In this document: piece after piece, positions 3,098 through 57,558 of the stretch | Layout of the letters: every line of letters begins with the position of its first letter | How positions within the stretch are numbered: the stretch's first letter is position 1 | Made by a program: the position numbers and the translations under genes | Assembly (NCBI RefSeq): GCF_000755245.1 | Contig: NZ_BBMP01000023.1 | Location: forward strand, 1 to 64,000 | From: Halococcus sediminicola | GTDB taxonomy: Archaea; Halobacteriota; Halobacteria; Halobacteriales; Halococcaceae | Reading direction: 5' to 3' | Length of the DNA stretch: 64,000 bases | Notes under the pieces: generated by a model | Told to the model about the DNA's origin: nothing | Database searches by the model: none | What the model saw: only the letters and a program-made list of their open reading frames with translations

Positions 3098-3120
3098 ATC
3101 TCAGAAATGGTTATTCAAAG

Positions 3121-3135: not shown

Positions 3136-3165
3136 TACCGAACAAGGTCTGCTACTCGGCCCGAT

Positions 3166-4368: not shown

Positions 4369-4381
4369 ACACAGAGGGTAG

Positions 4382-6560: not shown

Positions 6561-9500
6561 ATGGTAGAACGAGACCCCTCATCAAACACAGGTAGTATCA
6601 CACCTCATGCGATCACGCCATCTCGCCGGCAATTTCTACAAGCGATCGGTCTCGCCGGTCTCGCCGGGGCTGTCTCGTCGGGGACAGCCGTTGGCGCACC
6701 CAAAACATCTTCGAATGGGGGACCGGGAAGCGTCTCTAACCTCTCGGAATACATCGAAAATCCAGGGGTGTACGCCGAGAACCAAGAGCCTGCACATGCT
6801 CCGACGGCGGTTCCGTTCGATTCAGTGTCGGCTGCCCGGAGCGCGAACACCCATTTTGACGAACTGGAGACGCGCTTGGACGATTCACCGTACTACCGAC
6901 TTCTCAATGGAGAGTGGGATTTCGCGTTTTTCGAATCTCCCAATGACGTTCCCACGGAGTACTCTGGGACGTCTTTCGACACAATTGATGTCCCCCTGTC
7001 GTGGCACCTCGCGGGCTACGACGAGTACGTCTACGTCAACACGCCCCTAACCTGGACGGATATCGATGGGGCAAGTGCTGACCCGCCGAACGTACCAGAC
7101 AGCTACAACCCCGTCGGGGTATACCGACGCCAGTTCGACGTTCCTGATGACTGGGACAGTCGGAAGACATTCCTGAGCTTTGAGGGGGTCAAACAGGCGT
7201 ACTTCGTCTGGATCGACGGTCAGTACGTGGGCTACGACCAAGGGTCGATGACCACCGGTGAGTTCGATATCACCGACCACGTCACACCGGGCGAGTCCCA
7301 TCAGGTGACCGTCCAAGTGTATCGCTTCTCGGACGCCGAACCCTTGGAAACCCAGGATATGTTTCGGTACGCTGGGATCTTCCGCTCAGTATCGCTATAC
7401 TCGACGCCGACGGTCCGGCTCCGTGACTGGTTTGTCCGAACGGAGTTGGACGAAAACTACGAGAACGCCACGCTGACCGTGGACGCTGAGATTGCCAACT
7501 ATACGGAGTCAAGCCAGGGGAACCATACCATCCGTGGCCACCTATTCGATAGTGATGGCTCGAAAGTGACCACCCTCGAAACTTCAGACTCGATCGGCAG
7601 TTCCACGAGTACCGCACTCTCGATGGACACTACCGTCGCGGGACCGGACACGTGGACCGCCGAGGATCCGACCCTCTATACGCTCGTCTTCGAGCACGAG
7701 GTCGACGGCGCGACCACGGAGACGGTGTTCGAGCAGGTCGGCTTCCGGGAATACTCGATCAGCGACGCACAGTTCCGGGTTAACGGCCAGCCGGTCGACA
7801 TCCGAGGCGTGAACAAACACGAGACCGATCCCGATCACGGTCGGTACGTCCCACACGACCGAGTCCGGGAGGATTTCGAGTTGATGAAGCGCTCCAACAT
7901 CAATGCCTTCCGGTGTTCGCACTACCCAAACGACCCGTCGATCTACTACCTCGCCGACGAGTACGGTCTCTACGTTCAAGACGAGGTGAACGTCGAAACT
8001 CACTGGAATACGAACTACCTAGGAGAGAGCGACAACAGCGACGAACAGGCCGTCGAGCGCTTCGTACGGATGATCGGACGGGACAAGAACCGGCCATGTA
8101 TCTTCACGTGGTCGACGGGCAACGAAGCCGGTCTCCACGACGCCCACTACGACATGGCGGAGTTCAAGACTGGCGAGGACCAGGACGACGACGGAAGCGT
8201 ACTAGAAGAGTACCCCTTCGAGCCAACTATCGATCCGACCCGATTCCTCTATCACCAGGCAAACAACGGGGGCATCGCGCCGTTCGCTCCCATTGACGGC
8301 CCACGATACCCCTCGCCGGGGGCGATGCGGAGCAGAGCGATTGGCTCGTCCGTACCAATAATTATGGGCGAATACGCCCATGCGATGGGCAACAGCGGTG
8401 GTCTGTTCCACGACTTCTGGGACTACGCACAGCCCGACCACGAGACGGTCACAAAGACAGTCTTCGCGGACGAATCCGACGCCGGCAACACCGGCACGGT
8501 CATCGGCGACTCGCGTATCGTCGACGAGAATGACGGCGCGATCGTCTTCGAGAACGACGGCTATGTCGACGTTGGCACCGACTCCAGCCTCGACTTCACC
8601 GAACCCGGGTTCACGCTGTGGGCCCGCGTCAAGGACGAGGGCACCGATGACGACGATCCCTACATCACGCGCGGGGACAATCAGTACGCGTTGAAGATCG
8701 TCCCGGGCGATCCAACACCCAGTCTCCAATTTTTCATCTATGACGACGGGTATCAGGTCCTCAACGTGCCGGTGCCCGAGGGCTGGACGGAGGGTGAGGG
8801 TTATCACGACCTCGTCGGCGTCGCGACAGACTCGACGCTGAAACTGTTCGTCGACGGCGAACTCCTCGGGGAGACTCCGCACAATGCCTCGACCCTCGCG
8901 CCAACGGACTACAGTTACCCGGTCACGATCGGCTATAACGCCCAGGCGGACCGATACACCGACGCGTCGATTAGTCAGGTAAGAGTGTACGACCGAGCCT
9001 TATCGAATTCGGAGGTAGCGAGCGCGGCGAGCGACACCTCGCCGCCGAGCAGCGCTGTCCTCTGGATGGACTTCGCCCAACCCACGCGGAACACGGAACT
9101 CGAACGCTACGAGGAGTACGACCCCCTCCAGGGCGGGTTCGTCTGGGACTGGGTCGACCAGGCGGTCAACCGTGAACTGACCAGCAGTGACGCACCAGCG
9201 GCTTCATACCGATTCTACGACGGTAACCCGTTCTGTCTGAATGGCGTTATCTTCGAGGAGCGAACTCCCCAACCACAGTTCGAACAATTGAAAAAGAGCC
9301 ACCAGCCGGTCGGCGTGGTTGGCTCGGACCTCGTCGATGGCACCGTCAGAATCACCAACCATCTCGACTTCGCCAACTTGAGCACACTAAATACCACGTG
9401 GGAGCTACAGGCCGGCGAGGAGGTGGTCGAAAGTGGAACGCTCGCGCCGAACATCGCCCCCAGCGAGAGCACGGAAGTTACCGTACCATTCGAAAAACCA

Positions 9501-10724: not shown

Positions 10725-11046
10725 TTGTCGAACAGCTTCGTGGCGACTTACAACGGACTGGCACGGAATCGGCTCACGAGACCATCGGATCCGTCGGCGA
10801 TCGTGAGAATCGATGAGCGAAAGAGTTCTTGCACAACGTCTCGGTGAGAGTCTACAAGCATGTTGGGAAGCACAACCACGACCGTGGGGAAGGCTGTCAG
10901 TGACCAATAGCGCCTTCAGTACCTTCTGTATCGTCGGTGGGAGCGATGGAACAAGACGTTCTGTCGGGAGTTGTACGAGTTCGTGTTTGTAGTCGTGGCT
11001 TTTCGAAGCACCCATCTCGGAAGTGAGCCGCGTGAAAGAGCAGGCG
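10725..11046. other. Intergenic, no gene recognised
   Basis: Short open frames occur on both strands but none has a recognisable motif or a convincing start. It may be decayed DNA associated with the neighbouring ATPase pseudogene. Confidence 0.4.
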
Positions 11047-12179
11047 TTAGTTGCTCGTATCGGGAGACAACAACGACTCGATATCTACCGCACTGAACAG
11101 CGACCAATTTTCATCGAGATCATCCGCAAGACCGTCGACGAACCCACTTTTCGAGATGGGGGCGAATCGCTCGTCGCGCGTGTTTGGGCCCCACCGAACG
11201 TGTTCAGCATCCTCTCTGAGTGCATCTACGAGCGCGCATCCAACCGATTCAGCTGTCCACTTACACTCGGTGAAGAGTATTCGGTCGTCGTCCAGAGCGA
11301 GGCCGACGAGGTCGATTTCGTTTTCGTCGTACCACCATCGGCCGATTTCGGCATAGGGGTCAGCTCACCGCGACGAACTGCTTCCTAGACGGCTTCCTGA
11401 GAGATATCCTTGAGCGTTGTCGCGACGTGGTATCGCGATTGCTTCGAGAATACTCATATATCGGGCTGGATTTCGGAGTTCGGTGTGCAACAGAAACTCC
11501 GGTTCGTTATACAGAACGGCCGTCGGTGAGAGGACGTGCGTCTGGATGTTCTCACGAAGTAGTTTCGTGTAGTCAAGCAGCGTGAGATACATTGGTGCCC
11601 CACCAGTAATAGCGTACGATCGAGCTGCCTTTCAAAGGCGTACGGAATCGCTTCCCGAGCTTCCAGAAAGGAAAACGGCTGAAGATCGATCTGTCCCGTC
11701 CGGCGACCGTACAGCGGACTTTCGTGTCCGAGAACTTCGGACTCCATGGTACTCATACTGGACCCACACAACACGAGCATCGATTCGGTATCCTGCAGCC
11801 GCTCGTCGACGAACGACTGCACGTACGAGGAGAGGGAGGCGTTTTCGTTGACAAGATACGGAAACTCATTGATCACGACTACGAGCGTTTCCGTCGCGAG
11901 TTTCTCTCCGAGGTAGCCAAACGCCTCGTCCCACCGGTCGATTCGTGGCATGCGAACCCCGAAATGATCGGCAATCTGTTCAACGAACTTCTCACGCTGT
12001 CGCTGTTCTGCCTCCTGCGAAGCAAGGAACTAAACGTGAACTCGGTCAGCGCAAAATTGCTTGAGTAATTCGGCATTTCCAACCCGTCGCCGTCCATAGA
12101 CCACGTGCAAACCGTGACCGGGTGAGCCGTGGGCTCGTTCAAGCGCTTCGAGCTCGGCGTTCCTATCGTAGAAGGTCAT
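11047..12179 (-). pseudogene. Frameshifted archaeal ATPase (AAA_2 / DUF234 type)
   Basis: This family comprises P-loop ATPases with a C-terminal nuclease-like domain, common in archaeal accessory DNA. The frame starts at 12179 with the typical FYDRNAELEALERAH. The Walker A region reads GRRRVGNAELLKQF instead of the usual GKTEL, so the Lys and Thr are lost. Pieces continue in other frames: RWDEAFGYLGEKL with Walker B-like VVVINEFPYL, then LCGSSMSTMESEVLG, then YLTLLDYTKLLRENIQ, and last DPYAEIGRWWYDENEIDLVG ending SPDTSN at 11047. At least three frame changes plus the broken P-loop show that it is dead. Confidence 0.8.
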
Positions 12180-12311
12180 TCTCTGGATAATGATTATCGC
12201 GATAATTACTGAAGATAGTCGACTGCTGAAGAGGGGCCATCTTACTTTACAGTTTCTGTTTTTGCAGGGGTGGGAACAGCTATGCCCTTGGGGAAGATAT
12301 CCAGATATTGT

Positions 12312-13811
12312 ATGCCACACGAAGGTTTCACAATAGCAGAAGCAACTATCAGTCAGATTCATCGAGCTTTCGAATCAGGTGATCTGACTAGTGTCGATCT
12401 CGTCGAGAACTATATCCAGCGGATAGAAACGTATGATCGTAACGGTCCTCAAATCAACTCAATCAGAACGATCAACGACGCGGCAATTGACCGGGCCGAA
12501 GAGTGTGATCGGAAATTCGGAGAAACTGGTGAGTTCATCGGTCCACTGCATGGTATTCCTGTTCTCGTGAAGGATCATATCGAGACAACAGAGATGGTCA
12601 CCACGTTCGGCTCGTCTGCATTCGAAGGATACACCGCTGAAAACGATGCAGAAGTCGTTCGTCGGTTGCGAAATGCGGGAGGGATCATTCTGGCGAAAAC
12701 CAATATGCCGGATTGGGCCACGTCTTGGTTCGGCTTCTCATCAATAAGTGGTCGAACGAAAAACCCGTACGAACTAAGTCGTGATCCCGGGGGATCAAGC
12801 AGTGGGACTGGGGCGGCCATCGCTGCGAATCTCGGTACAGTCGGTATTGGAACAGATTGTGGAGGGTCGATTCGTCTTCCAGCTTCCTTCGACAACCTCG
12901 TCGGATTTCGTGTGACGCCGGGATTGATCAGCCGATCCGGCATCAGTCCATTAGTATCGCAACAGGATACTGCCGGGCCGATGACTCGAACAGTGCAGGA
13001 CACGGCCAAATTGCTAGATGTACTCGTGGGCTACGACGAACACGACGAGCTAAGTGGAAAAACAGAATTCAAGACGATCAATGATTCGTACACAAACCAT
13101 CTCTTAGTTGATGGGCTAAACGGGACCCGAATCGGGGTACTTCGAAGTAAATTCGGCGATGACGACGACTCCACTGCTGGGCCAGTCAATCGGGTAATCG
13201 AGACTGCGCTCACGACGATGCAGAATGCTGGAGCAAACCTCGTCGATCCGGTGGAAATTCCACAGTTGGATGAGTATCTCGACGATACTATGTTGTATAC
13301 GATCCAATCCAAGAGTGACATTAACGACTTTCTCGATGACCGTGATACTCCGGTCGATTCAGTAACTGAACTGTATGAGAATGGCCAATATCATGATGTA
13401 CTTGATCTGTTTATCGCCTTTGCTGAGGAGGGATCGGACGACATTTCCGACGACATAGAATATTGGCAGCGAGCTGCCGCCCAGCATGCATTTCAGATGG
13501 ATATTTTGCATGTGTATGCTAAGCATGACCTTGATGCGATCGTCTTCCCGGATGTCCAGGTTGTGCCACCGAAGGAGAGTGAAATTCGTGAAGGGAAATA
13601 TCAGACGATGACTTTCGCGACAAACACGATCATTGCCTCCCAGTCTCTGTGCAGTGCAATGTCCGTCCCAGCGGGGGTCACTGCTGATGGATTGCCAGTC
13701 GGGATGGAAATCCTCGGCAAACCGTTCGACGAACCGTCACTCCTCGAGATCGGCTACTCGTTCGAACAAGCCACGGATCATCGCCATCAGCCCAAAACAA
13801 CGACTGACTAG
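12312..13811 (+). CDS. Amidase (amidase-signature family)
   Basis: The 499-residue hydrolase (from the ATG at 12312) cleaves carboxamides or related C-N bonds. The Ser-cisSer-Lys triad is visible: K87 in PVLVKDH, the GGSSSGTGAA glycine/serine loop at about 160-168, and the nucleophile S186 in GTDCGGSIRLPAS. The length fits the family. It lacks GatA-specific context (no gatB or gatC nearby), so it is more likely a stand-alone amidase than a glutamyl-tRNA amidotransferase subunit. Two upstream ATGs (12270, 12282) are in frame, but the family usually begins near FTIAEATISQIHRAF, which favours 12312. Confidence 0.9.
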   Translation: MPHEGFTIAEATISQIHRAFESGDLTSVDLVENYIQRIETYDRNGPQINSIRTINDAAIDRAEECDRKFGETGEFIGPLHGIPVLVKDHIETTEMVTTFGSSAFEGYTAENDAEVVRRLRNAGGIILAKTNMPDWATSWFGFSSISGRTKNPYELSRDPGGSSSGTGAAIAANLGTVGIGTDCGGSIRLPASFDNLVGFRVTPGLISRSGISPLVSQQDTAGPMTRTVQDTAKLLDVLVGYDEHDELSGKTEFKTINDSYTNHLLVDGLNGTRIGVLRSKFGDDDDSTAGPVNRVIETALTTMQNAGANLVDPVEIPQLDEYLDDTMLYTIQSKSDINDFLDDRDTPVDSVTELYENGQYHDVLDLFIAFAEEGSDDISDDIEYWQRAAAQHAFQMDILHVYAKHDLDAIVFPDVQVVPPKESEIREGKYQTMTFATNTIIASQSLCSAMSVPAGVTADGLPVGMEILGKPFDEPSLLEIGYSFEQATDHRHQPKTTTD

Positions 13812-13965
13812 CGACTATTTGGTGACCTCCTCATCATCAAGGCACTCGTCGTGAATCGCGCAGATCCACGCTGATGCCGACGGCAATGACAACCGAAATC
13901 TGAACGACGAGTACGTCGTCTTCGAGAACACTCCCCAGAATCGGTGGTGAAGTAAGACGAGGTGT

Positions 13966-14310
13966 TCAGGCCCACGGGTCGAGTTCTTCGCGTCCCATGA
14001 ACTCGTCGCGTCTTGGATACGCGTCAACCATCGCAAGAAGGGCCGACGCAACGCGATATGCGGGCATCGTGTCGTCGTATAGAAGCACGATCCCAGCGTG
14101 AGTATCTACCTGTTGATCGCTGAAGTCTTTCACGTCGCTCGTCACAATGATGAGGTTGTGTTCTCGTGCGTACGGCAGGACATCATCCGCGTCGTCCGCA
14201 CCCTGCCAAAGGACATCGCGAACGTGTTCGGCGTGAAGCCCCTCCTTTCGTAGGTAGGTTGCGGTCTTCGGGTCGAGGTTCTCGTCGCAGAGAAATCGCC
14301 ACTCGCTCAT
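13966..14310 (-). CDS. DUF5615 PIN-like toxin
   Basis: The 114-residue PIN-like nuclease domain starts MSEWRFLCDENLDP; the Asp-Glu-Asn of the first strand is the hallmark of DUF5615. A second acidic cluster is in QGADDADDVLPYAREH and a third in VTSDVKDFSDQ, matching the acidic residues of PIN folds. The ATG at 14310 follows the stop of the DUF433 gene by 1 bp, so it is preferred over an in-frame ATG at 14349. It is expected to be the toxin (RNase) of a type II pair with the upstream DUF433 protein; activity is inferred from the family. Confidence 0.8.
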   Translation of the reverse strand: MSEWRFLCDENLDPKTATYLRKEGLHAEHVRDVLWQGADDADDVLPYAREHNLIIVTSDVKDFSDQQVDTHAGIVLLYDDTMPAYRVASALLAMVDAYPRRDEFMGREELDPWA

Positions 14311-14311
14311 C

Positions 14312-14605
14312 TCACGCCGTATCTGGATCGACGCCTTCCGGCCGGTCAATCGTCTTGCGGAACTCTCTCATGGCCACCTCCCGTTCGTCTTCCATCTCAC
14401 GCATCTCACGTGGGTGATCATGGTAGTATGCGAGTGCATGATAGACATCAGCCAGATCAAGGTCGAATCGGTCGGCAACCGATTCTGGGTCTTCGTCGCG
14501 TGTTTCGATGAGAGCGTACACTTGCCGGACGCTGATGCGCCGTCCATGGATATGTGGCTCTTCCATGATGTCACGAGCAATCCGCCGTGTGTCACGCTCG
14601 GCCAT
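14312..14605 (-). CDS. DUF433 antitoxin
   Basis: The 97-residue protein has the DUF433 helix-turn-helix (residues about 15-65: HIHGRRISVRQVYALIETRD, then ADRFDLDLADVYHALAYYHD), a known partner of DUF5615 toxins. The charged C-terminal tail (MREMEDEREVAMREFRKTID) is suited to wrapping the toxin. It precedes the toxin gene and its stop is 1 bp from the toxin ATG, so the two are translated together. Autoregulation is expected but no clear operator is visible. Confidence 0.8.
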   Translation of the reverse strand: MAERDTRRIARDIMEEPHIHGRRISVRQVYALIETRDEDPESVADRFDLDLADVYHALAYYHDHPREMREMEDEREVAMREFRKTIDRPEGVDPDTA

Positions 14606-14698
14606 GTATAGTGTATCTCTCTACAACCGCAAAAACGTACTGCCAACAGATACCCACCAGCACCGTCTCCCCAATTGCCGAGGATGGCGACTGAACCG

Positions 14699-14851
14699 CT
14701 AAGTTCGTGTGGTGAGGTCCAAAGTAACCGCAACCGGAGTTAGCGCGCACTCGTGCCGCCGACAGATCCCGCACGATCCACGTACGGTCGAGTAGATGCA
14801 AGCCGGGGCGTCGTATTCAGTGCCGTCCGTCCCGCAAATCGTGCATTGCAT
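14699..14851 (-). CDS. Possible small zinc-finger protein
   Basis: This 50-residue frame has MQCTICGTDGTEYDAP at its start and RGSCGICRRHEC later: two CxxC knuckles with an extra HxxC, a likely single zinc site. Small CxxC-CxxC proteins of this size are abundant in haloarchaea. The frame is open for a further 40 codons upstream without a start (TTECYPRHDESGTDWRRWTE), so this may be the end of a longer decayed gene. Confidence 0.4.
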   Translation of the reverse strand: MQCTICGTDGTEYDAPACIYSTVRGSCGICRRHECALTPVAVTLDLTTRT

Positions 14852-15323
14852 CGGCGTAATCGTCGGGTCGGCACTGCATTCGGTCCACCGTCGCCAGTCT
14901 GTTCCGCTCTCGTCGTGCCTTGGGTAACATTCCGTTGTTTCTGGAAAGCCAGCTGTTACACAAGGTGAGAAAAACGACTAGTCATTTGCGTTGCCCAACC
15001 ACGATCTCCATACCCTCGTCACCGCTGATCCGGACGATTGCCGAGTGCTACTGACGCCCGACCACACTGTCGAGATTGAATCACCACCGACAAGACGAGA
15101 GCACGAACAAGCGTCTCTCGGCTGTCTACCCCGTTGGGGGAGTTAGCTGAAGTGCATGGGCGTAGACACCCAGCGTCCGTTGGAGGTGAGTTTTCAGGTC
15201 CGTTTCGTATTTAGGCGTACTCAGCACCCCTCTCCCCCTAAGTGGGAGTCAATTGTTATCGAATTTTAGACCAGTTTGCAACACGGCCAAAAAATCAATG
15301 TATATGAAGGAAGTTGGTATGGT
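14852..15323. other. Intergenic, nothing recognised
   Basis: I see no supported gene or clear repeat. The AT-rich part at 15253-15310 could hold the promoter of the following gene, but no TATA element has standard spacing to 15324. Confidence 0.4.
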
Positions 15324-16250
15324 ATGCCATCGAAAGGCACTAAACAGCAGAAGCAGTTTTCGCGACGTACTGCTCTCAAAGCTGCAGGTGCAATTGTCGG
15401 AACTTCAGCATTGAGTACTACTGCAGCAGCGCAGGATTCTAGAAACAAGGAGGCAAATTCTGATCAAGGCGAGGATTATAGTCCTCGTATAACTGCACAT
15501 CGTGGATACAGAGATCTCTTTCCGCAGAATACGTTAGCAGCTATGGAAGGCTCGTCGCAAATCGGGGCTGACCGAATTGAGATCGATATTATGCCATGTC
15601 GTGAAGGAGAAATTGTCGTATTTCATGATAATTCACTGGATAGCCTTACAGATAAAGAAGGAATAGTAGGCGACACTTCTTGCGAAACGGTACTAGATGC
15701 TGAAGTTCTAGAGACAGGTGAGACAGTACCAACACTAACTGAAGTTCTTGACACAGTCGAGCCAAGTATTACGATGAATATTGAATTCAAGAGTTCATTC
15801 AATTACTCTTGGGAGTATGTTGCCAAACGTACATTGGACATTGCTTCAGGATATTCTGGTGATTTTTATGTTTCTTCGTTCAGCAGAGATGCACTCGAAG
15901 CAGTTCGAAAGATTGATCCGGATGTTGATGTAGCAAAATTGTTTGGAAATAACAAGAAAAGGAATTTGGAATTTGCCAGAAAAATCGATGCTGAAGCACT
16001 CAATCCTTCATTAGGGGTACTTGATCGAGATTTGGTTGAAACCGCTCACGAGGAAGGACGCGAAGTGAATGTCTATACGGTCGATGATTGGAGAGAGGCC
16101 CGTCAACCTATTGAACTGGATGTTGACAGTCTTATTGCGGATACGCCAACTGTTCTTGAATATTTTAGTTTGATGGCTGACAATGATGGCGAACACGACG
16201 ATGATGAGCGCGACGACGATGACGAGCACGATGACGAACACGAGGATTGA
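15324..16250 (+). CDS. Tat-exported glycerophosphodiester phosphodiesterase
   Basis: This 308-residue GDPD releases an alcohol from glycerophosphodiesters to give glycerol 3-phosphate. A Tat signal covers residues about 13-40 (FSRRTALKAAGAIVGTSALS). The TIM-barrel catalytic signature is ITAHRGYRDLFPQNTL, followed by the metal-binding ADRIEIDI and the catalytic His in VVFHDNSLDSL. The last 25 residues are nearly all Asp, Glu and His (DDDERDDDDEHDDEHED), possibly metal binding. Base composition is clearly more AT-rich than flanking genes, hinting at horizontal origin. The ATG at 15324 places the twin arginines at the usual distance; an upstream ATG at 15276 would give a long leader. Confidence 0.88.
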   Translation: MPSKGTKQQKQFSRRTALKAAGAIVGTSALSTTAAAQDSRNKEANSDQGEDYSPRITAHRGYRDLFPQNTLAAMEGSSQIGADRIEIDIMPCREGEIVVFHDNSLDSLTDKEGIVGDTSCETVLDAEVLETGETVPTLTEVLDTVEPSITMNIEFKSSFNYSWEYVAKRTLDIASGYSGDFYVSSFSRDALEAVRKIDPDVDVAKLFGNNKKRNLEFARKIDAEALNPSLGVLDRDLVETAHEEGREVNVYTVDDWREARQPIELDVDSLIADTPTVLEYFSLMADNDGEHDDDERDDDDEHDDEHED

Positions 16251-45706: not shown

Positions 45707-46912
45707 ATGAAAATCATCGATTCCTACCACGAGACGCAGAGTTCACAGTCGAACAAGCGTGATTCATCACAGATCGCCAACGTTTCACGCCGTCGATTTC
45801 TTACCACCTCCGGAAAAGTCGGTCTCGCTACTGCGGCCTCGATAGCTGGTATCGGACAAGCAGCAGGTGCCGACACCAAAGAACGTGATCTGCTCATTCA
45901 GGGCCTCGGTGAGCGCGCGACCTACTCGTTTGCTGTCAGCGGGAACCTCGAAAAGGATTCGTATTCTGGTGCGGACATCGACGATACCGATACCATCACG
46001 AACAACGGAGCGAGTGGAAGGGTTGAAAACGGTGGTGACGCTTACACCTTTACTGGCGATCTCCTTGCGTTCGATCTCAACGGCGAGGCGCAGGTATCCC
46101 TCGGTGCCCATGGAGCACGCGTCGGTAACCGACCGGACTATCTGCTCGAAATCGAGGGATTCGGTATGCACACGCCCTATTCGTTTAGTGTAGAAGATAA
46201 CCTCCAGAAAAGTGCAGCTGGCGACGCGACCATCAGCAGTAGTGACGATATCGTCGAACAGAGCGCCCATGGCGCGGTCGGGAGTGGAACAGACGCTTAC
46301 ACGTTCGATGGGTCGCTCCATGCCTTTGATTTCGATTCGTCTGGTGAAGTCAACGTCACACTCAATGGCAAGCCGGCGCGTATTGGTCAACGATCCGACC
46401 ATCTGCTCGTCATAGAAGGATTTGGAACGAATACTCGCTACTCCTTCATGACCAGCAACTATCCATTCAAGAGTGATGCTCAGGGGGCAACTATCGACCC
46501 ACAGGATGAGAACCCGACAAATGGTGCTTTCGGTGTAGTCGGTGGAGGAAAAGATGCATATACATATGATGGTCATTTGCGAGCGTTCGATTTCGACCGT
46601 TCGGGAGAGCTTCGGATCACCATTGATGGCAAACCTGCCCACGTGGGCGATCGCCCTGACCGAGTGCTCCGTATCTTTGCTGACGGAGAGTACAGCCCCT
46701 ATGAGTTCTCGGTCAGTGGATCTATTCGTGAAAAAAAGGGCGTTGAAAGCCAACAGGATACCATCAACGGTAAGTCGGTGTCCGGTGCCGTCAGCGGTCA
46801 AGGGAACGACCAGTACACTTTCGATGGTGAGCTAACGTCGCTGAGCTTCCCCGGTGAGAACTCGCCTCTGGTTCATAGTAACGGCGAACGAGTATCTCCG
46901 AACGACGTCTAA
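45707..46912 (+). CDS. Tat-exported protein with four tandem beta-repeats
   Basis: The 401-residue secreted protein has a Tat signal (SRRRFLTTSGKVGLATAASI, residues about 28-50) and then four repeats of about 84 residues starting LLIQGLGERATYSFAVSGN, LLEIEGFGMHTPYSFSVED, LLVIEGFGTNTRYSFMTSN and VLRIFADGEYSPYEFSVSG. Each repeat contains GxGxDAYTFxGxLxAFDF and a final xGxPARxGxRxD. Similar single modules occur at the C-termini of haloarchaeal secreted polysaccharide-active proteins. No enzymatic domain is present, so a binding or cell-surface structural role is inferred. Repeats 2 and 3 are closest to each other. Confidence 0.75.
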   Translation: MKIIDSYHETQSSQSNKRDSSQIANVSRRRFLTTSGKVGLATAASIAGIGQAAGADTKERDLLIQGLGERATYSFAVSGNLEKDSYSGADIDDTDTITNNGASGRVENGGDAYTFTGDLLAFDLNGEAQVSLGAHGARVGNRPDYLLEIEGFGMHTPYSFSVEDNLQKSAAGDATISSSDDIVEQSAHGAVGSGTDAYTFDGSLHAFDFDSSGEVNVTLNGKPARIGQRSDHLLVIEGFGTNTRYSFMTSNYPFKSDAQGATIDPQDENPTNGAFGVVGGGKDAYTYDGHLRAFDFDRSGELRITIDGKPAHVGDRPDRVLRIFADGEYSPYEFSVSGSIREKKGVESQQDTINGKSVSGAVSGQGNDQYTFDGELTSLSFPGENSPLVHSNGERVSPNDV

Positions 46913-50163: not shown

Positions 50164-50270
50164 ATGACCGAGCAATTTGATGATGGTGTCCGTGTGTGGC
50201 TGGTCGAACGAACCTACTTTGACGACGAGCAGAATCTGATTATCCTCACCTACGCAACTCCCGATGTTCG
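50164..50270 (+). pseudogene. 5' remnant of a small haloarchaeal gene
   Basis: MTEQFDDGVRVWLVERTYFD then DEQNLIILTYATPD is the conserved start of a small haloarchaeal family. After the ATPD the frame enters DNA that is the 3' end of the minus-strand beta-propeller gene, where family resemblance ends. The junction lies near 50258-50270. Confidence 0.6.
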
Positions 50271-51517
50271 TACGAAAGCGCGACAACGCGACCATCGCCG
50301 TAGATCGCATACAGTTCCTCGGCGGGGTCGTCGTCTGTATTCGCAATTGTCGGATGGACATAGATCGGCACGTTTCGCTCGTACGAAGCACGGATGTCCC
50401 CCGAATCCGGATCAACGACTGAGACGATGCCGTTGTTCGTCACCGCCACCAGTTCCGGTTCGCCATCGCCGTCGATATCACCCATGCTCGGCGGCGGCGT
50501 CATCGGTACGTCCTCGGCGGTGAGTTGGGTCGACCACTCAACCGTGCCGTCGCTCGCGTTGAGACTCCTGAGTTTGCCGTCCTTGGCGGCTACATAGACT
50601 TCGGCTGTCCCATCACCATCGCCATCCTCGAAGGCGTGAACCGCCGCGAGATCGTCGAAGTTCTTTCGCCACTGCACCGCCCCGCGCTCACCATCAAGCG
50701 CGACGACCCGCCCACCGACCGTTGCAGCAATGATCTCGACCGCCTCATCGTCATCAGCCTTCCCAGTCGTCATCCACGTAATTGACGACCCGAACGGCTT
50801 CGTTTGATTCCAGGTGACCGTTCCGTTCTGGTCTAACAGAACGGCTTTCTGACCCGCTCCGACGGCGATTTCGCTCTCGTTGTCACCAGTGAAATCGGCG
50901 ACCGCGGGTTGGGCCTCCGTCTTCGCGTCGAGCTTCCGGGTCCAGACCGCGCTGCCGTTAGGCCGAACGACGAACGCCGTTCCGCGGAAGTCGACGACAA
51001 CGATTTCTTTGGTGCTGTTGCCGGTCACGTCCGCGACGAGGGGTTGGGTGTAACCGTAGTCGGTGAGGTTGTGTTCGAACTCTTGGGTGCCGGTTTGTGG
51101 GTCGAGAGCGGTGACGAGGTCTTCGGTCGTGGTTGCGACGACCTCTTTCGTCCCATCGTCGTCGAAATCGGCGAGTATCGGGTCGGCGACCGAGTGAATC
51201 GTGCAGTTGGCCGGCGGGACCTGATAGCGCCACTGTGGTGTTGCGTTGTCGGCGGCCAGCGCCACGAGCCGACAACTGCTAGTGTTCCCGCTCCCGCTGA
51301 TCGGCGCGAACACCATTCCCTTGCCGTTGATTTTCCCGGCAGCAGGGGCGTGGTGATTCCCGACGATATCCGTCGAGGTGTTACTCACCCATCGTTCGTC
51401 GAGCGTGCCGCCCGAGCTACTGAGACTACTGAACCCGAGAACCGCCGTTCCAGCTAGTACCGAGAGAATGAGCACTGCGGCCACCACAGTTCGCGCCTGC
51501 ACACCTCCGCATTCCAT
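50246..51517 (-). CDS. Secreted PQQ/FG-GAP-type beta-propeller protein
   Basis: The 423-residue protein has an N-terminal membrane anchor or signal (VVAAVLILSVLAGTAVLGFS, residues about 10-30) and then about seven propeller blades with calcium-type loops: DFDDDGTKEVVATT, DVTGNSTKEIVVVD, DFTGDNESEIAVGA, DGDGDGTAEVYVAA and DIDGDGEPELVAVT, alternating with PQQ-like Trp motifs (ERGAVQWRKNF, SDGTVEWSTQL). It is probably extracytoplasmic. The last residues (SYEHRELRR) overlap a broken plus-strand gene, so the C-terminus may be altered by recombination. It is divergent from the polytopic membrane protein at 51618. Confidence 0.75.
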   Translation of the reverse strand: MECGGVQARTVVAAVLILSVLAGTAVLGFSSLSSSGGTLDERWVSNTSTDIVGNHHAPAAGKINGKGMVFAPISGSGNTSSCRLVALAADNATPQWRYQVPPANCTIHSVADPILADFDDDGTKEVVATTTEDLVTALDPQTGTQEFEHNLTDYGYTQPLVADVTGNSTKEIVVVDFRGTAFVVRPNGSAVWTRKLDAKTEAQPAVADFTGDNESEIAVGAGQKAVLLDQNGTVTWNQTKPFGSSITWMTTGKADDDEAVEIIAATVGGRVVALDGERGAVQWRKNFDDLAAVHAFEDGDGDGTAEVYVAAKDGKLRSLNASDGTVEWSTQLTAEDVPMTPPPSMGDIDGDGEPELVAVTNNGIVSVVDPDSGDIRASYERNVPIYVHPTIANTDDDPAEELYAIYGDGRVVALSYEHRELRR

Positions 51518-51617
51518 CCAGCCGGGAATAAAGCTCGTGTTGGCCTAATGGATTCGAGAATCGTACCAATGGAGGTGATATCAACGGCTTCTTTGCTACT
51601 ATTCAGTAAGTAAGGGA

Positions 51618-52994
51618 ATGGACAAGCGCCGGAGCGTGCTCATTCTTCTGATCGCACTTACGACGTTCGTCGACGTCGTGGGTGCCCATCAGATTCAGAA
51701 TTCACGCTTCACCGCACCGATTCCGCTCTCCCTATTGTTTGGCGGTGCGGGGGTCACGGTTGCTGCCACAGCGGCATGGCTCGCTGTGACGGGCGAGCGC
51801 TCCGCGACGGCACGAACGTGGGATGGGGTCGTGATTCCGACGAATATCGCAAAATTCGTGCGGTATGGGGCGCGAGCGATCTTTTTCAGTGGCTTTCTCG
51901 TCACCATCGCTCGTGGTCTCTTCGGCCCGCAGATCGCCGCCGAGAACTTCGCCACAGTGTTCGTCTGGGCTGTGTGGTTCAAGGGCGTCGGCCTGCTCTC
52001 GATTCTCATCGGAAACCCGTGGCGAGTGCTGTCGCCGTGGCGGACGCTCTACGATGGACTGGCGCGGATCGAGGGTAGCGACATCGCGTTGGTCGACGAA
52101 TATCCGTCGTGGCTCGGCTACTGGCCCGCACTCGGCGGATTCATCGTCGGCATCGGCATCTTGGAAAATCTCACGGTCGTGCCACGCTCGCCAGTAGCGA
52201 CGGCCATCGTCATCGCTGGCTATGCCACAATGATGGTCCTCGGTGCGGTTGTCTTCGGTCGGGAATGGTTTCGCTATGCTGACGCGCTGTCAGTGCTCTA
52301 TCAACTGTTTGGACGGGTTGCTCCAGTGGATTACCGCTCGGTGGATGACGGCTACCGCGTCGTCGTTCATCCGCCATGGACCAACTGTACGCATCCCGTC
52401 GAGCGCTTCGGTCTCGTCGCGTTCGTCGTTGCCACAGTTTATACAGTGAGTTTCGACGGCTTCACGAACACGCCGGAGTTCCAGAGCCTTCTGTTCAGCC
52501 TTCGTGATTTGCTTACGACCGGCCCCGAGACGAGCGTGCTCGTGTACGTGCTTGGATTAGGTGGATTCATCGCGGCGTTCGTTATCGTCAGTATGGCAAT
52601 GCAAATCGCTGGTGCGGGTGGTGGGTGGAGAAATACTGCTATTGCGTTTGCACCGACGGTACTGCCGATTGCCGCGGCCTACGAGGTTGCCCACAACTAC
52701 CCGTTCGTCGTCGAGCGGCTCGGACGGCTCATGGCTATCGCGTGGTCGCTTGTTCTCTCGCCGGTAGGACCACCTAATCTGCTCGGGTGGCTCTCGCTGC
52801 CCGTGTTTTGGGGCTCCCAGGTACTGTTGATCGTCGCTGGACACGTCATCGCTGTTGTGGCTGCTCATACTGTGGCAGTCGAGCGCTACGAAACGCTCGC
52901 CCGGGCTAGACGAGCACACCTTCCCCTTGTGATGCTGATGGTTGGCTACACGGTGATTTCGTTGTGGGTCATCTCGCGGCCAGTCGTTTCATGA
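51618..52994 (+). CDS. Polytopic membrane protein of the family often misnamed fenitrothion hydrolase
   Basis: The 458-residue protein has about 11-12 hydrophobic helices. The pattern NPWRVLSPWRTLYDGLARIE, then YPSWLGYWPALGGFIVGIGI, FGRVAPVDYRSVD and VYTVSFDGFTNTPEFQSLLF matches a family found in actinobacteria and haloarchaea that is frequently labelled fenitrothion hydrolase without experimental support. The function is unknown. Its position among a Tpd/P19-like lipoprotein and a DyP-type peroxidase suggests transport of a metal or heme-related substrate, by inference only. It starts at the ATG at 51618 after an AT-rich leader. Confidence 0.65.
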   Translation: MDKRRSVLILLIALTTFVDVVGAHQIQNSRFTAPIPLSLLFGGAGVTVAATAAWLAVTGERSATARTWDGVVIPTNIAKFVRYGARAIFFSGFLVTIARGLFGPQIAAENFATVFVWAVWFKGVGLLSILIGNPWRVLSPWRTLYDGLARIEGSDIALVDEYPSWLGYWPALGGFIVGIGILENLTVVPRSPVATAIVIAGYATMMVLGAVVFGREWFRYADALSVLYQLFGRVAPVDYRSVDDGYRVVVHPPWTNCTHPVERFGLVAFVVATVYTVSFDGFTNTPEFQSLLFSLRDLLTTGPETSVLVYVLGLGGFIAAFVIVSMAMQIAGAGGGWRNTAIAFAPTVLPIAAAYEVAHNYPFVVERLGRLMAIAWSLVLSPVGPPNLLGWLSLPVFWGSQVLLIVAGHVIAVVAAHTVAVERYETLARARRAHLPLVMLMVGYTVISLWVISRPVVS

Positions 52995-53148
52995 GAGAAA
53001 TGATTCGACTCCTGTACCAGAATCATTATTCGGATGATTGCCCTATCACCACTAATGGAACAACGAAGTCGTCCCTGCAGGAACAATCCTCGTTATCGGC
53101 CCCGACATGACGATGCTCTCACACGGGATAGGAAGGTAACAGCGTGAA

Positions 53149-53514
53149 ATGGAGCTACCAATTTCCGTTCTGCATATAGGAATGAGCCAAGGATCGACAC
53201 TGATCGGCGATATCGCGCTGCCAACCGTCCTCGCCATTACGGGCATCGTCTCACTGATTGTCCTCGGACTTGCCGTCGTTGCGTTGACACAGCGACGCTC
53301 GCGCTCGTATCTGCTGATCACAATGGCGCTCGGGACATTGGCAGGGCGCACGCTGGTCGGCGGGTTGGCGATGGAGGGAATGGTTACGGTAGTCTTCCAC
53401 CATCTTCTCGAACACGCGCTTGATGGCGTCATGGCTATCCTACTGCTCGCCGCGGTATACTACGCTCGCACGACTGAACGTCCGAACCCGACCATCAATG
53501 AACAAGACTCGTAA
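53149..53514 (+). CDS. Small DUF7471-like membrane protein
   Basis: The 121-residue protein has three hydrophobic helices (IALPTVLAITGIVSLIVLGL, SYLLITMALGTLAGRTLVGG, HHLLEHALDGVMAILLLAAV). The last contains His and Asp residues (VFHHLLEHALDGV) that could bind a metal. It overlaps the winged-helix regulator gene by 17 bp, as in many haloarchaeal operons where such a protein sits beside an HTH protein, so it may sense or signal at the membrane. Function otherwise unknown. Confidence 0.65.
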   Translation: MELPISVLHIGMSQGSTLIGDIALPTVLAITGIVSLIVLGLAVVALTQRRSRSYLLITMALGTLAGRTLVGGLAMEGMVTVVFHHLLEHALDGVMAILLLAAVYYARTTERPNPTINEQDS

Positions 53515-54022
53515 GCGCGTCGCGCGGCGCATCCACACGGCTCCCGGCATTCATTTCAACGGACTCGTGCGCACGCTCGACCTCGCGCCCGGACAGGTCC
53601 AATACCATCTGAAACGGCTGTGTTCATCGGGAGCGGTAACCGACGAGCAGCGATACGGTCGGACCCACTACTACCCGCCCGAGTGTAACGAGTGGCGACG
53701 CGGCGCGCTCTCGCTGTTGCGCCGCGAGACCGCCGGTGATATCGTCGCGGTGCTCTGTGAGCACGGGCCAACACGGCCCCAACCACTCGCCGACGAACTC
53801 GATGTCGCCCGCAGCACACTTGAGTGGCACCTTGATCACCTCGTTGAACAGGATGTCATCGTGAAGAAGCGCGACGAACGCAATCATGTCACGCTCGTGC
53901 TCGTTCGCCCAACCGAGACGACGCGGCTGCTGCGGGAAGTCAGCCCCTCGTCGCCGACGCGCATGGTCGATCGGTTCGTTCGCCTGACCGATCGGTTGCT
54001 GGAGGATGTGGCAGAGGAATAG
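53498..54022 (+). CDS. Double winged-helix regulator
   Basis: The 174-residue protein has two winged-helix domains: residues about 5-60 (RRIHTAPGIHFNGLVRTLDL then APGQVQYHLKRLCSSGAVTD) and about 75-125 (DIVAVLCEHGPTRPQPLADE then LDVARSTLEWHLDHLVEQDV). The sequence is typical of haloarchaeal regulators that accompany a small membrane protein. The start ATG at 53498 lies inside the preceding gene (17-bp overlap), which couples the two. It probably regulates the adjacent membrane protein and metal/peroxidase genes. Confidence 0.8.
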   Translation: MNKTRKRVARRIHTAPGIHFNGLVRTLDLAPGQVQYHLKRLCSSGAVTDEQRYGRTHYYPPECNEWRRGALSLLRRETAGDIVAVLCEHGPTRPQPLADELDVARSTLEWHLDHLVEQDVIVKKRDERNHVTLVLVRPTETTRLLREVSPSSPTRMVDRFVRLTDRLLEDVAEE

Positions 54023-54096
54023 CCGGCCGTCGCCGTCGTCGTTTCATAGCTCATGTCGAGGCCACGTGACGCCGGTAGAAATGATCCAGCGAATCA

Positions 54097-55254
54097 CTAC
54101 CCGGACGATTTGCCGCCGACGGTGAGCGTTCGCGACGGCATATCGAGAAAGGCGGTTTCATAGCCCTCGTGACGGGCGACCTGCGGTGGCGCATCAACCG
54201 TGATCTCGATCTCGTCGTCGGACTGGATACTCTCGACACCGACTCCGTAGTGGTAGTTCAACTCCGGGTCGATCGTCGCCTGGAGCGGCCCATCGAAGAC
54301 CGTCTCGTCGCCCCGCATCACTGTCGCCGACAGCGACATCGCCGGTAGGATGTATCGGTTGTACGGCGTCCGTGCCGAGACGGCAAGATACTTTTTCCCA
54401 TCCGTATCGAACCGGGATGCCTCGTCGAGCGCTCGCACGACGAACACAGCGTTGCCGGTCCGGATCGTCCCGAGCGGTCGGCCGGGAAGCGCCTCCTTCT
54501 TCGGCGCGAGTGTGAGCGGCATTTTCTTCATGTTCATTGGCTTGACCGCCCCGCGTGTGCCCGCTTTCTCACCGAGCCGCTTGAACATGATGTCGCTCAT
54601 TTTCTCGGGGTCAAAGGTGAGCGTGAACTCAAACGACTGCCGGCCACCGAACCGGTTCGCGAATGCACCCGTCCGCTGTGCGGACGTCGGCGGGATGTTG
54701 ACCCTGACGGTGTAATCACCGGCACCGGGCAGCGAGACGTTGTCGCCGGTATGAAAACCCATGTTCTGGGAGAGCATCGTCCACGGGGAGAGTGTCGTCA
54801 CCGATTCGCCGTCTTGCGAGACTGATACCGTCGGGTTCGTATCTAACGGCGAAATCCCGGTTGCCGGATCCCAGACGTTCACCATGAGGTGGAGCGAATC
54901 GTCCTCCACGGACACCTTCTTCGTCCGCTCGCCGGTGACGGTCCAGAACCGGTGGGGATAGCTATACGAGAGTGCACACCGATAGCCCGTAGCCGTTCCC
55001 GAACTGTCCCGTGAGCCGTTCGAGCGGTTTGTTGCATTTGTTCCGTTTCCGGCGGCCGTCTCGCTCACACCGACCATTTTCATGCCTTCGACGTGCGAGG
55101 GAAAATAAACGGCAGCGGGACGGTTCTCGGGCAGTGGTGGCATCCGCCCTGGAGGTCCTGTCTGGACAGAGAAAAGCCCCGAACAGCCGGCGAGGAGGCC
55201 AGCGCCGACCGTGCTCGCGGCCGTGCCGGCTCGGAGAAACGATCGTCGATCCAT
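54097..55254 (-). CDS. Tpd/P19-like lipoprotein (DUF7350-type)
   Basis: The 385-residue protein begins MDRRSFLRAGTAASTVGAGL with a twin-arginine signal and a lipobox ending LLAGC (Cys about 24). A P19/Tpd-type domain is at about residues 90-210: CALSYSYPHRFWTVTGE, MVNVWDPATGISPLDTNP, MGFHTGDNVSLPGAGDYTVR. His and Met residues in FPSHVEGMKMVG and MGFHTGDN are candidate metal ligands. A C-terminal beta domain (NAVFVVRALDEASRFDTDGK) follows. Tpd/P19 proteins bind iron or copper outside the cell and feed permeases. The DyP-type peroxidase gene lies 103 bp upstream on the same strand, so they are probably co-transcribed. Confidence 0.7.
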   Translation of the reverse strand: MDRRSFLRAGTAASTVGAGLLAGCSGLFSVQTGPPGRMPPLPENRPAAVYFPSHVEGMKMVGVSETAAGNGTNATNRSNGSRDSSGTATGYRCALSYSYPHRFWTVTGERTKKVSVEDDSLHLMVNVWDPATGISPLDTNPTVSVSQDGESVTTLSPWTMLSQNMGFHTGDNVSLPGAGDYTVRVNIPPTSAQRTGAFANRFGGRQSFEFTLTFDPEKMSDIMFKRLGEKAGTRGAVKPMNMKKMPLTLAPKKEALPGRPLGTIRTGNAVFVVRALDEASRFDTDGKKYLAVSARTPYNRYILPAMSLSATVMRGDETVFDGPLQATIDPELNYHYGVGVESIQSDDEIEITVDAPPQVARHEGYETAFLDMPSRTLTVGGKSSG

Positions 55255-55357
55255 TACCTACCCTATGACTGCTTGCTTCGAGTGCGTTCTGGTTCAGTGC
55301 TCGAAAACGGGTTCGGTAGGTTGCGTAGCGACGATTCCGTATTTGTCGACATTCAGT

Positions 55358-56638
55358 TCACTGCCGCGGCACGGCGGCAGGAAGCGCCCGTAGCCCGCGC
55401 GGTGGGAGGAGGTAGTTGCCGCGGCGCGTCACAGACATATACTGGAGAATGCCGTTGTTGTTCTTTCGACCGAGTGCGGATTCCTCGGCGAGGTCGGTGC
55501 CGGTCATTGACTCGCGAGTCTTCGTGAAATCGGTCGTGTCCTGCTGGAGTGAGAGGAAATGCAGTGTGGCTTCGTCGCCATCGGTCGAATCGAAATCGCG
55601 CCGGAGGATCACCGGTCGGTCGTTCTCGCGCGCACGGGCGGCCTTCTGCGAGTGGCCGACCAGCCCCGACTCGCGGGCGGATTTCTCGGCGGGCGGACAG
55701 TCGTCCATTCGGCTCGAATTGCCCAGATTGTCGCCGTCACCCTCGACAATACCCGACTCGGCGTGGGCTGGGCAAAACATCTTGCCGACGCGCTGATAGC
55801 GGCTGTCCTGCTCGTACCACTGATCGAGGTGGAGCTTGATTGTCGAGATCTGCTGGGTCGTTCCGCCCGTGAACGGTCCTGAGTTAATAGTCACGTCGTC
55901 CTCGGTCGCCTGGTTTTTGTCGAAGCCGGATTTGAAACCCATGTACAACGGCGAGTCGTCGGGTACGGGCTCTGAATCGGGAATCCCTTGGACGTCCTGA
56001 TTATCAGCGGGTAATCCGTCGCCAACGAACCCTGTCCGCCGGTCAATCCGCTCGAAAACCTTCTTGAGCGAGACGTCGATGTCGACACCGTTCAGATTTT
56101 TCCGGTCTCCTACGAGAGCCTCCTCCGCACCCAAGACGACCTGTCCGTGGTCGCTGGCGAGGTGTACGACTGCATCCGGCCGATCGAGTTCCGGGGCCTC
56201 GAATGGTGTGAGCGCCTTCGGCTTCTGGAGATCGACCGACTGCGGGAGCGACTCGTTGAAGCGTTCGAAATACGCCGGCGAGTAGCTCACGGTGAACAAC
56301 AGGCCGTCGTGGGAGTGGGGATACGCCCGTTCAAGCGTTCGCAGTGCTCGTTCCATTTGCTCCCCGTCTTTTCGCGTTGGCGTCCCCTCTTTCCGGTAAC
56401 GGAGGTATAGCAGCACGCGGTGGCGCGGACCAAGGTGGTTGTCGTTGTCGCCGAGCGCGAGGAACTCGTTCCATGCGTGTTGGCGCGTCGGCAACGTCGA
56501 GAGGTCGTTCGGTCCTTGCGGGAGGTCAGGAGCGTTCTCGCGGGCTACGCAGGCTGACAGCGCTGCCGGCCCGCCGATTGCGACGGCAGCTTTCACGAAC
56601 GTGCGTCGGGAGAGACCCCTCTCCGTGCCTGCTGGCAT
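55358..56638 (-). CDS. Tat-exported DyP-type peroxidase-like protein
   Basis: The 426-residue protein has a Tat signal (SRRTFVKAAVAIGGPAALSA; a Cys at about 30 in LSACVA could be a lipobox). The sequence then runs through motifs of haloarchaeal DyP-like proteins: NHLGPRHRVLLYLRYRKEGT, FTVSYSPAYFERFNESLP, VVHLASDHGQVVLGAEEAL and late HSQKAARARENDRPVILRRD, HFLSLQQDTTDFTKTRESM. In EfeB-like enzymes this fold binds heme and can release iron from it or use peroxide. A canonical GxxDG motif is not clear (DGLPADNQ), so activity is uncertain. The gene order with the Tpd-like lipoprotein echoes bacterial EfeUOB-type iron uptake. Confidence 0.7.
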   Translation of the reverse strand: MPAGTERGLSRRTFVKAAVAIGGPAALSACVARENAPDLPQGPNDLSTLPTRQHAWNEFLALGDNDNHLGPRHRVLLYLRYRKEGTPTRKDGEQMERALRTLERAYPHSHDGLLFTVSYSPAYFERFNESLPQSVDLQKPKALTPFEAPELDRPDAVVHLASDHGQVVLGAEEALVGDRKNLNGVDIDVSLKKVFERIDRRTGFVGDGLPADNQDVQGIPDSEPVPDDSPLYMGFKSGFDKNQATEDDVTINSGPFTGGTTQQISTIKLHLDQWYEQDSRYQRVGKMFCPAHAESGIVEGDGDNLGNSSRMDDCPPAEKSARESGLVGHSQKAARARENDRPVILRRDFDSTDGDEATLHFLSLQQDTTDFTKTRESMTGTDLAEESALGRKNNNGILQYMSVTRRGNYLLPPRGLRALPAAVPRQ

Positions 56639-56949: not shown

Positions 56950-57558
56950 ATGGTAGACACAGACCACTCCTCAACACCGGACAAGAGTACGACTCGACAT
57001 ATTGGACGGCGACGTTTCCTTGGAGGTGCCGTTGGCGCTGCTAGCGCAGCAATCGCTCTCCCTGCGATAACTGGAGTCGCGGCAGCCCATTTCCCAGCCG
57101 AACTTGATATTGATGTTCAACCAGATAATGAAGATAATTATGTTGATTTCAACAAACACGACCATGTCTCGGTCGCAGTCCTTCCCTCGACGTTTCTCAA
57201 TAGCGAGGGGAAGCGCGAAACATTTGATCCGACCGAACAAGATGTAAGATATAGATTTGGTTCACGGAGTGCTCTTGACGACGGAGAAGGTGCTCGTCCT
57301 GCTGGGAATGGTAAAGTCACTAAAATACATTCTGGTCATGGAAATGATGCAGAGTCGGTCAATGCGGTAGCTCTACAATTCCCGATTAATAGTACGGGTC
57401 TTGATAATGAAAACGACGTTGCATGGCTTTACTGGGAGCGAGATGAGTCTGGTGAACATGGATACGCTGGATTTGATACAGTTACTGTTGTTGGAAACCC
57501 TGTAGCCCAAGACTTACTCGCTTTCTTCAGGAATCTACTACAGAATTTTTCTAGGTGA
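56950..57558 (+). CDS. Tat-exported secreted protein with IDVKP-like domain
   Basis: The 202-residue secreted protein has a Tat signal RRRFLGGAVGAASAAIALPA (about 21-45, cleaved after AAH). One domain is seen: ELDIDVQPDNEDNYVDFNKH, VSVAVLPSTFLNSEGKRETF, VRYRFGSRSALDDGEGARPA and VNAVALQFPINSTGLDNEND. It resembles the IDVKPxSxPNSIN-type domain of secreted haloarchaeal and bacterial proteins (VPVAILGS, L-R-F-G, LxLxFxxxxTGL). Binding role unknown. ATG 56950 is preferred; 60 more codons are open upstream but lack a signal. Confidence 0.7.
   Translation: MVDTDHSSTPDKSTTRHIGRRRFLGGAVGAASAAIALPAITGVAAAHFPAELDIDVQPDNEDNYVDFNKHDHVSVAVLPSTFLNSEGKRETFDPTEQDVRYRFGSRSALDDGEGARPAGNGKVTKIHSGHGNDAESVNAVALQFPINSTGLDNENDVAWLYWERDESGEHGYAGFDTVTVVGNPVAQDLLAFFRNLLQNFSR

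What the first reader, a model, noticed from the sequence alone, without database searches (positions are those of the whole stretch)
50246..56638. Candidate uncharacterised surface metal-acquisition locus
Six adjacent genes encode a secreted beta-propeller, a polytopic membrane protein of a family wrongly called fenitrothion hydrolase, a His/Asp-bearing small membrane protein overlapping a double winged-helix regulator, a Tat-exported Tpd/P19-like lipoprotein and a Tat-exported DyP-like peroxidase. Bacterial EfeUOB and P19-FTR1 systems pair a periplasmic metal-binding protein, a permease and a DyP peroxidase. Here no classical permease is present, so the polytopic protein is the candidate. 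The system is not known to me as described.
Basis: inference. Interest (0 to 1): 0.75.

Follow-up and report, generated by a model that had tools for sequence, protein, structure and literature searches.

The report
Haloarchaeal surface metal-handling gene cluster
A conserved set of salt-loving archaea genes, never described as a system, appears to capture a metal (copper is the better bet than iron) outside the cell with a lipid-anchored binding protein, a heme enzyme lacking its usual catalytic residue, and an uncharacterised membrane protein with three invariant histidines.

Summary
In detail: all six genes are present, and the cluster is conserved (nine TPD-centred regions, the window included, hold all six). 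In 145 haloarchaeal genomes the distributions are nested: POLY (99 genomes) only where TPD (124) occurs, TPD only where DYP (128) occurs. Of 150 listed TPD genes, 79 lie within 4 kb of DYP; 0.45 are expected by chance. (1) TPD belongs to the FtrA/P19/FetP/Tp34 fold, but the acidic residue of the HLE motif is Met in 70/70 copies and one His is gone. (2) DYP has the EfeB/DyP fold with axial His and distal Arg, but lacks the catalytic Asp in 46/46, so it should not be called a peroxidase without an assay. It is also a predicted lipoprotein. (3) FTR1 is absent from the whole genome. (4) POLY matches no family or solved fold, but three histidines (YxxAH...GHxxAVxxAH) and Asp/Glu are kept from haloarchaea to bacteria. 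(5) Neighbours point mostly to copper: SCO near 19 TPD genes (0.3 expected); CopC, PCu(A)C and a PmoCAB-type monooxygenase near bacterial POLY. Haloferax instead has a Zn/Cd/Pb-type ATPase. Best reading: a copper-leaning EfeUOB/FetMP analogue; metal and direction are unproven.

The parts
50246..51517 (-). PROP: exported, N-terminally anchored PQQ/FG-GAP-type beta-propeller, divergent from POLY (100 bp between them); candidate surface scaffold
   Evidence: PF13360 5e-20, FG-GAP 2e-13; near TPD in 18 of 81 regions
51618..52994 (+). POLY: about 10-TM membrane protein of unnamed family; invariant H359, H409, near-invariant H417 (YxxAH...GHxxAVxxAH), D/E222; candidate membrane metal partner
   Evidence: alignments; AF2 pLDDT 88, pTM 0.87; no family, no confident PDB fold
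53149..53514 (+). SMALL: DUF7471, 3-4 TM protein with invariant H9 and HHxxEHxxD motif (H84, H85, E88, H89, D92); candidate membrane metal sensor
   Evidence: PF24283 3.5e-27; alignment A4
53498..54022 (+). REG: double winged-helix transcription regulator (HTH_HVO_0163_N + ArsR/MarR-like wHTH), start overlaps SMALL by 17 nt
   Evidence: PF24266 6e-35, HTH_20, ArsR-type matches
54097..55254 (-). TPD: Tat lipoprotein; P19/FtrA/Tp34-like domain with invariant H101, H122, M124, M160, M165, H168, plus C-terminal DUF7350 with invariant H335, H362
   Evidence: PF10634 and PF24041 above cut-offs; FtrA 2.7e-6 in PDB; hhalign 95%; columns
55358..56638 (-). DYP: Tat lipoprotein of DUF7405 with EfeB/DyP fold; axial H329 and distal R346 kept, catalytic Asp of GXXDG replaced by S237 (S/A/T in 46/46); upstream of TPD in the same direction (103 bp gap)
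   Evidence: PF24152 8e-161; VIA-align Z 27 to EfeB 6jbn; EfeB alignment
56950..57558 (+). P7: Tat-exported protein without a family, near TPD in a minority of loci; possible accessory gene
   Evidence: 6 of 81 regions

Best explanation
The cluster encodes an envelope metal-handling module of haloarchaea, most likely centred on copper. Two Tat-exported lipoproteins sit on the outer face of the membrane. TPD binds the metal with the His/Met core of a P19-type site plus further invariant His/Met. DYP holds a heme and, lacking the DyP proton-transfer Asp, works as a redox partner or protective heme protein and not as an ordinary peroxidase. POLY offers a three-His plus Asp/Glu site at or in the membrane that takes the metal (or electrons) onward. 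SMALL senses metal with its H...HHxxEHxxD set and signals to REG, which controls the locus. PROP is a surface scaffold. Shown: gene content, conservation, co-occurrence, linkage, folds of DYP and TPD, residue changes, absence of FTR1, statistical link to SCO. Inferred: metal identity, direction of movement, heme binding, role of POLY, sensing by SMALL/REG, scaffold role of PROP.
For: Nested distribution in 145 genomes: POLY 99, TPD 124, DYP 128, no TPD without DYP and no POLY without TPD (Fisher 1e-18, 7e-13). TPD within 4 kb of DYP 79/150, expected 0.45. TPD within 4 kb of the copper chaperone SCO 19/150 in 19 genomes, expected 0.32; SCO with TlpA and CcdA beside TPD in Haloferax and beside POLY/TPD in Natrialbaceae. 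TPD aligns to FtrA with H122, M160, H168 matching and Glu replaced by Met124 in 70/70; Met for carboxylate favours Cu(I) (general coordination chemistry). Bacterial POLY lies beside PCu(A)C, a PmoCAB-type monooxygenase, and CopC, a heme-copper oxidase subunit and a metal-sensitive regulator. POLY's three His kept in bacteria. DYP fold Z 27 to EfeB.
Against: Haloferax and Haloarcula copies sit beside a P1B ATPase whose ACPC and DAG motifs read as the Zn/Cd/Pb type. The window's own genome has no SCO at E 1e-10, so the SCO link comes from relatives. P19 itself binds copper yet serves iron uptake (PMC8267372, PMC6083913), so a copper-like site does not settle the metal. Some bacterial POLY homologues sit in catabolic clusters without copper genes. 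POLY is linked to TPD/DYP in only 30 of 99 genomes. The 145 genomes are related by descent, so the Fisher values overstate independence. No expression or binding data exist here.
Confidence: 0.42

Rival explanations
1. Iron uptake system working like EfeUOB/FetMP: TPD captures iron, DYP oxidises or strips it, POLY is the permease.
For: P19/FetP/FtrA relatives serve iron uptake (PMC6083913); DYP's best structural matches include the iron-import EfeB proteins; PGAP names TPD 'iron transporter'.
Against: No FTR1 in the genome; Glu to Met in the P19 site and loss of a His; DYP lacks the catalytic Asp; neighbours are SCO and heavy-metal ATPases; none of the neighbourhoods examined showed a recognised iron permease or siderophore gene.
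Confidence: 0.2
2. Cuproenzyme maturation: TPD, DYP and POLY deliver copper (and redox) outside the membrane to CuA oxidase, halocyanins or copper nitrite reductase, with SCO/TlpA/CcdA.
For: SCO-TlpA-CcdA beside TPD and POLY; POLY beside PmoCAB and heme-copper oxidase genes in mycobacteria; a TPD paralogue in this genome lies beside DUF2243.
Against: Many loci have no cuproenzyme or SCO gene nearby; genomes with SCO but no TPD exist (for example G008, G011, G015).
Confidence: 0.18
3. Heavy-metal detoxification (Zn/Cd/Cu): TPD binds excess metal outside while export pumps remove it.
For: P1B ATPase in 12 loci and a CDF transporter beside TPD/POLY.
Against: The window and most other loci carry no exporter; near-universal presence (124 of 145 genomes) suggests housekeeping; lipoprotein-DyP pairing resembles uptake systems.
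Confidence: 0.12
4. Heme or oxidative-stress module in which metal binding is secondary: DYP is a heme carrier or sensor, POLY a membrane cytochrome with bis-His heme.
For: POLY's conserved His pairs in transmembrane helices also suit heme ligation; DYP keeps the heme-site His and Arg; some bacterial POLY lie with Mo-hydroxylases that need electron acceptors.
Against: SCO, ATPase and P19 links point to metal ions; no heme biosynthesis genes were recognised in the neighbourhoods examined.
Confidence: 0.08

Closest known systems
EfeUOB (EfeUOB/M) ferrous iron transporter
   Same: Tat-exported DyP-fold protein next to an exported metal-binding protein and a membrane protein; EfeB is among the best structural matches
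   Different: No EfeU/FTR1 permease in the genome, no EfeO/M75 match in any cluster protein, DyP Asp replaced by Ser/Ala, regulator pair and propeller added
FetMP / P19-FTR1 / FtrABCD iron systems
   Same: TPD contains the P19/FetP/FtrA domain
   Different: No FTR1; carboxylate ligand is Met, one His lost, extra DUF7350 domain, lipoprotein; DyP partner instead of cupredoxin or thioredoxins
Tp34 (Tpd) lipoprotein of Treponema
   Same: Lipoprotein with the same domain, matched in PDB at E 0.013
   Different: Tp34 has no DUF7350 domain, to my knowledge; no DyP partner known to me
SCO/PCu(A)C/CopC copper delivery systems
   Same: Genomic neighbours of TPD or POLY in several lineages
   Different: None of the six proteins in the window belongs to these families by Pfam

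Membership tests
P19/FetP/Tp34 family (PF10634) | Domain match above the curated cut-off | tested here: met
   28.1 bits vs 21; all three genome copies over the cut-off; FtrA in PDB 2.7e-6
P19/FetP/Tp34 family (PF10634) | Site residues His, Glu (HLE motif), Met, His and a further His | tested here: not met
   His122, Met160, His168 kept; Glu is Met124 in 70/70; the further His region is RTGAF, no His
P19-FTR1 / FetMP / EfeUOB transport system | FTR1-family permease with REXXE motifs | tested here: not met
   No FTR1 in the genome, four control genomes found; RE..E in only 4 of 34 POLY
EfeUOB | EfeO/M75 domain protein | tested here: not met
   No such match in any cluster protein; rest of genome not searched for it
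DyP-type peroxidase | DyP dimeric ferredoxin-like fold | tested here: met
   Foldseek 2e-16, VIA-align Z about 27, rmsd about 3.3 A over about 300 residues, on a model of pLDDT 84
DyP-type peroxidase | Axial His and distal Arg | tested here: met
   H329 and R346 align with EfeB H329 and R347, invariant in 46/46
DyP-type peroxidase | GXXDG motif with catalytic Asp | tested here: not met
   EfeB D235 aligns with S237; S 29, A 16, T 1, no Asp in 46
DyP-type peroxidase | H2O2-dependent peroxidase activity with heme | not testable with these tools
   Needs purified protein
CopD or other known copper transporter (for POLY) | Pfam match | tested here: inconclusive
   No Pfam match for the window protein; only insignificant matches among 34 relatives
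DUF7405, DUF7350, DUF7471 families | Pfam match above cut-off | tested here: met
   535, 189 and 95 bits

The most novel reading that the evidence does not exclude
POLY is the founding member of a new class of membrane copper (or heme/copper) protein, conserved from haloarchaea to mycobacteria and rhizobia, with a three-His plus Asp/Glu site, working in haloarchaea with a Met-rich P19 variant and a DyP-fold heme protein that has abandoned peroxidase chemistry: a metal-uptake or delivery system distinct from EfeUOB and FetMP.
Probability: 0.3. Interest if true: 0.75.

Novelty: new variant of a known kind. Interest (0 to 1): 0.52.

Why it matters
If true, nearly all haloarchaea carry an undescribed envelope metal system. 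Copper import in this group is unresolved: a genome survey of Haloferax mediterranei could name only a CopD-domain gene and non-specific importers as candidates (PMC9240420), although these cells depend on halocyanins and copper oxidases. POLY gives a concrete gene to test across archaea and bacteria, and DUF7405 offers a natural set of DyP-fold proteins without the catalytic Asp.

Tried and rejected
POLY fold search: no Foldseek match at E<0.001; best VIA-align Z 8.5, below the level that means anything for helical bundles. POLY vs PDB profiles: nothing. Direct hhalign of DYP vs EfeB: only a weak local match, replaced by a multiple alignment. The small gene overlapping the start of bacterial POLY: only insignificant matches, one cupredoxin-like at E 0.03. 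Literature: no paper found on the locus; 'FedB' swamped by unrelated words; HVO_0163 gave no paper. Rejected: chance clustering; plain EfeUOB or FetMP membership (FTR1 absent). Not attempted: promoter or regulator-site footprinting, and a third structure model (cap reached).

Full report
What is there. The six ORFs are real. They form three apparent units: PROP (-); POLY, SMALL, REG (+), with 100 bp between the divergent PROP and POLY starts; and DYP-TPD (-), with a 103 bp gap. By Pfam, PROP is a PQQ/FG-GAP propeller, SMALL is DUF7471, REG is a HVO_0163-type double winged helix, TPD is Iron_transport plus DUF7350, DYP is DUF7405, and POLY has no family. DYP, like TPD, has a Tat signal followed by an invariant lipobox Cys (Cys30 in DYP; Cys24 of TPD in 68 of 70), so both are predicted surface lipoproteins. 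REG starts at 53498 and overlaps SMALL by 17 nt (own count).

Is it a unit. A genome-collection scan with TPD returned 80 haloarchaeal loci. Of 81 TPD regions, the window included, DYP lies near in 46, POLY in 38, SMALL/REG in 32, PROP in 18, and all six in nine. In a separate even draw of 145 haloarchaeal genomes DYP occurs in 128, TPD in 124 and POLY in 99. No genome has TPD without DYP, or POLY without TPD (compared by hand). Of 150 listed TPD places 79 lie within 4 kb of DYP against 0.45 expected, and 35 of 148 POLY places lie within 4 kb of TPD or DYP against 0.9 expected. The lists are capped at about 150 places, and the genomes share ancestry, so these are descriptions and not exact probabilities. 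The own genome holds two further TPD genes: one with its own DYP (C6) and one beside a DUF2243 membrane gene (C27).

TPD. The profile of 70 TPD sequences finds FtrA, FetP, P19 and Tp34 structures. hhalign to an Azospirillum FtrA (a gene followed by cupredoxin, FTR1 and 4Fe-4S genes) gives 95% probability and places H122, M160 and H168 on the FtrA His, Met and His. The FtrA Glu of HLE is Met124 in all 70 haloarchaeal sequences, and the FtrA His-rich stretch (QHVHF) is replaced. Other invariant residues are H101, M165, H335 and H362; E56 and M58 are nearly so. A carboxylate exchanged for a thioether favours soft copper (general coordination chemistry; inference here).

DYP. The model (pLDDT 84) matches DyP proteins; the best by VIA-align are EfeB and A-type DyPs at Z about 27. 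Aligned with E. coli EfeB, H329 and R346 take the places of the axial His and distal Arg, but D235 of the GXXDG motif is S237. Over 46 sequences that column is S 29, A 16, T 1. In KpDyP the distal Asp deprotonates H2O2 (PMC6153280). So DYP is a member of the fold, while the defining motif fails; ordinary peroxidase chemistry is doubtful but untested.

POLY. AF2 gives a confident model (pLDDT 88, pTM 0.87) of about ten transmembrane helices, yet neither sequence nor fold searches name it. H359 and H409 are invariant and H417 nearly so (32 of 34), within YxxAH and GHxxAVxxAH, with D222. Ten bacterial homologues from plasmids keep the same three His, but for one gap at the third, and have Asp or Glu at 222. 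Because the model's coordinates are not released, I could not check whether these residues meet in space.

Neighbours as clues to the metal. SCO (copper chaperone) genes lie within 4 kb of 19 of 150 TPD places, each in a different genome, against 0.32 expected. In Haloferax, TPD, SCO, CcdA, TlpA and DYP sit together; in Natrononativus and Haloterrigena SCO-TlpA-CcdA is beside POLY, with TPD next in Haloterrigena. Bacterial POLY lies beside PCu(A)C, a PmoCAB-type monooxygenase, and CopC, a heme-copper oxidase subunit and a metal-sensitive regulator. In other bacteria the neighbours are nicotinate or other catabolic genes. In Haloferax and on Haloarcula plasmid pNG600 a P1B ATPase and, in the latter, a CDF transporter are present; the ATPase motifs read as Zn/Cd/Pb type (my reading of ACPC and DAG; not tested). 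So copper leads, iron is possible, and more than one metal across the family is possible.

Mechanism. I commit to an envelope copper-handling module: TPD captures, DYP supplies heme-based redox or protection, POLY relays across or within the membrane, SMALL/REG sense and control. Steps shown: content, conservation, folds, residue changes, linkage. Steps inferred: metal, direction, heme binding by DYP, POLY's function, sensing, PROP as scaffold. I put this at 0.42, with iron uptake at 0.20, cuproenzyme maturation at 0.18, detoxification at 0.12 and a heme/oxidative module at 0.08.

Novelty. No paper on this locus was found in the open PMC library, which misses most subscription journals. The domains are catalogued (DUFs, 'iron transporter', 'Dyp-type peroxidase domain'), so the parts are known as families but not as a system. 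I rate it a new variant of a known kind, with POLY the part most likely to be truly new.

Noticed in passing
G000 C6 (L109, TPD+DYP about 9895-12668) and C27 (L110, TPD 8946-10178): Two more TPD genes in the same genome; C6 with its own DYP (79% TPD identity, 88% DYP) and an MBL-like neighbour, C27 divergent from a DUF2243 membrane gene.
   Followed up: partly
L090 (Haloarcula marismortui pNG600, 3023-15490): A metal island: CDF transporter, P1B ATPase, POLY, two TPD, DYP, small protein and winged-helix regulator; similar TPD/POLY arrangements recur on plasmids of Halobaculum, Salarchaeum and Halorussus.
   Followed up: partly
L096 (Mycobacterium dioxanotrophicus plasmid, 5354-11422): A POLY homologue, with a small gene overlapping its start, lies just upstream of a PmoCAB-type copper monooxygenase operon.
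   Followed up: no
L094, L095 (Neorhizobium, Fuscovulum plasmids): POLY homologues embedded in nicotinate-hydroxylase and branched-chain-type ABC transporter clusters without copper genes.
   Followed up: no
window 56950-57558: Tat-exported protein P7 without a known family, near TPD in a few genera.
   Followed up: partly
window 45707-46912: Tat-signal protein built of about four repeats of roughly 90 residues.
   Followed up: no
L089 (Haladaptatus salinisoli plasmid, 8944-11596): POLY directly followed by a DyP-type gene with no TPD within the 19 kb shown.
   Followed up: no
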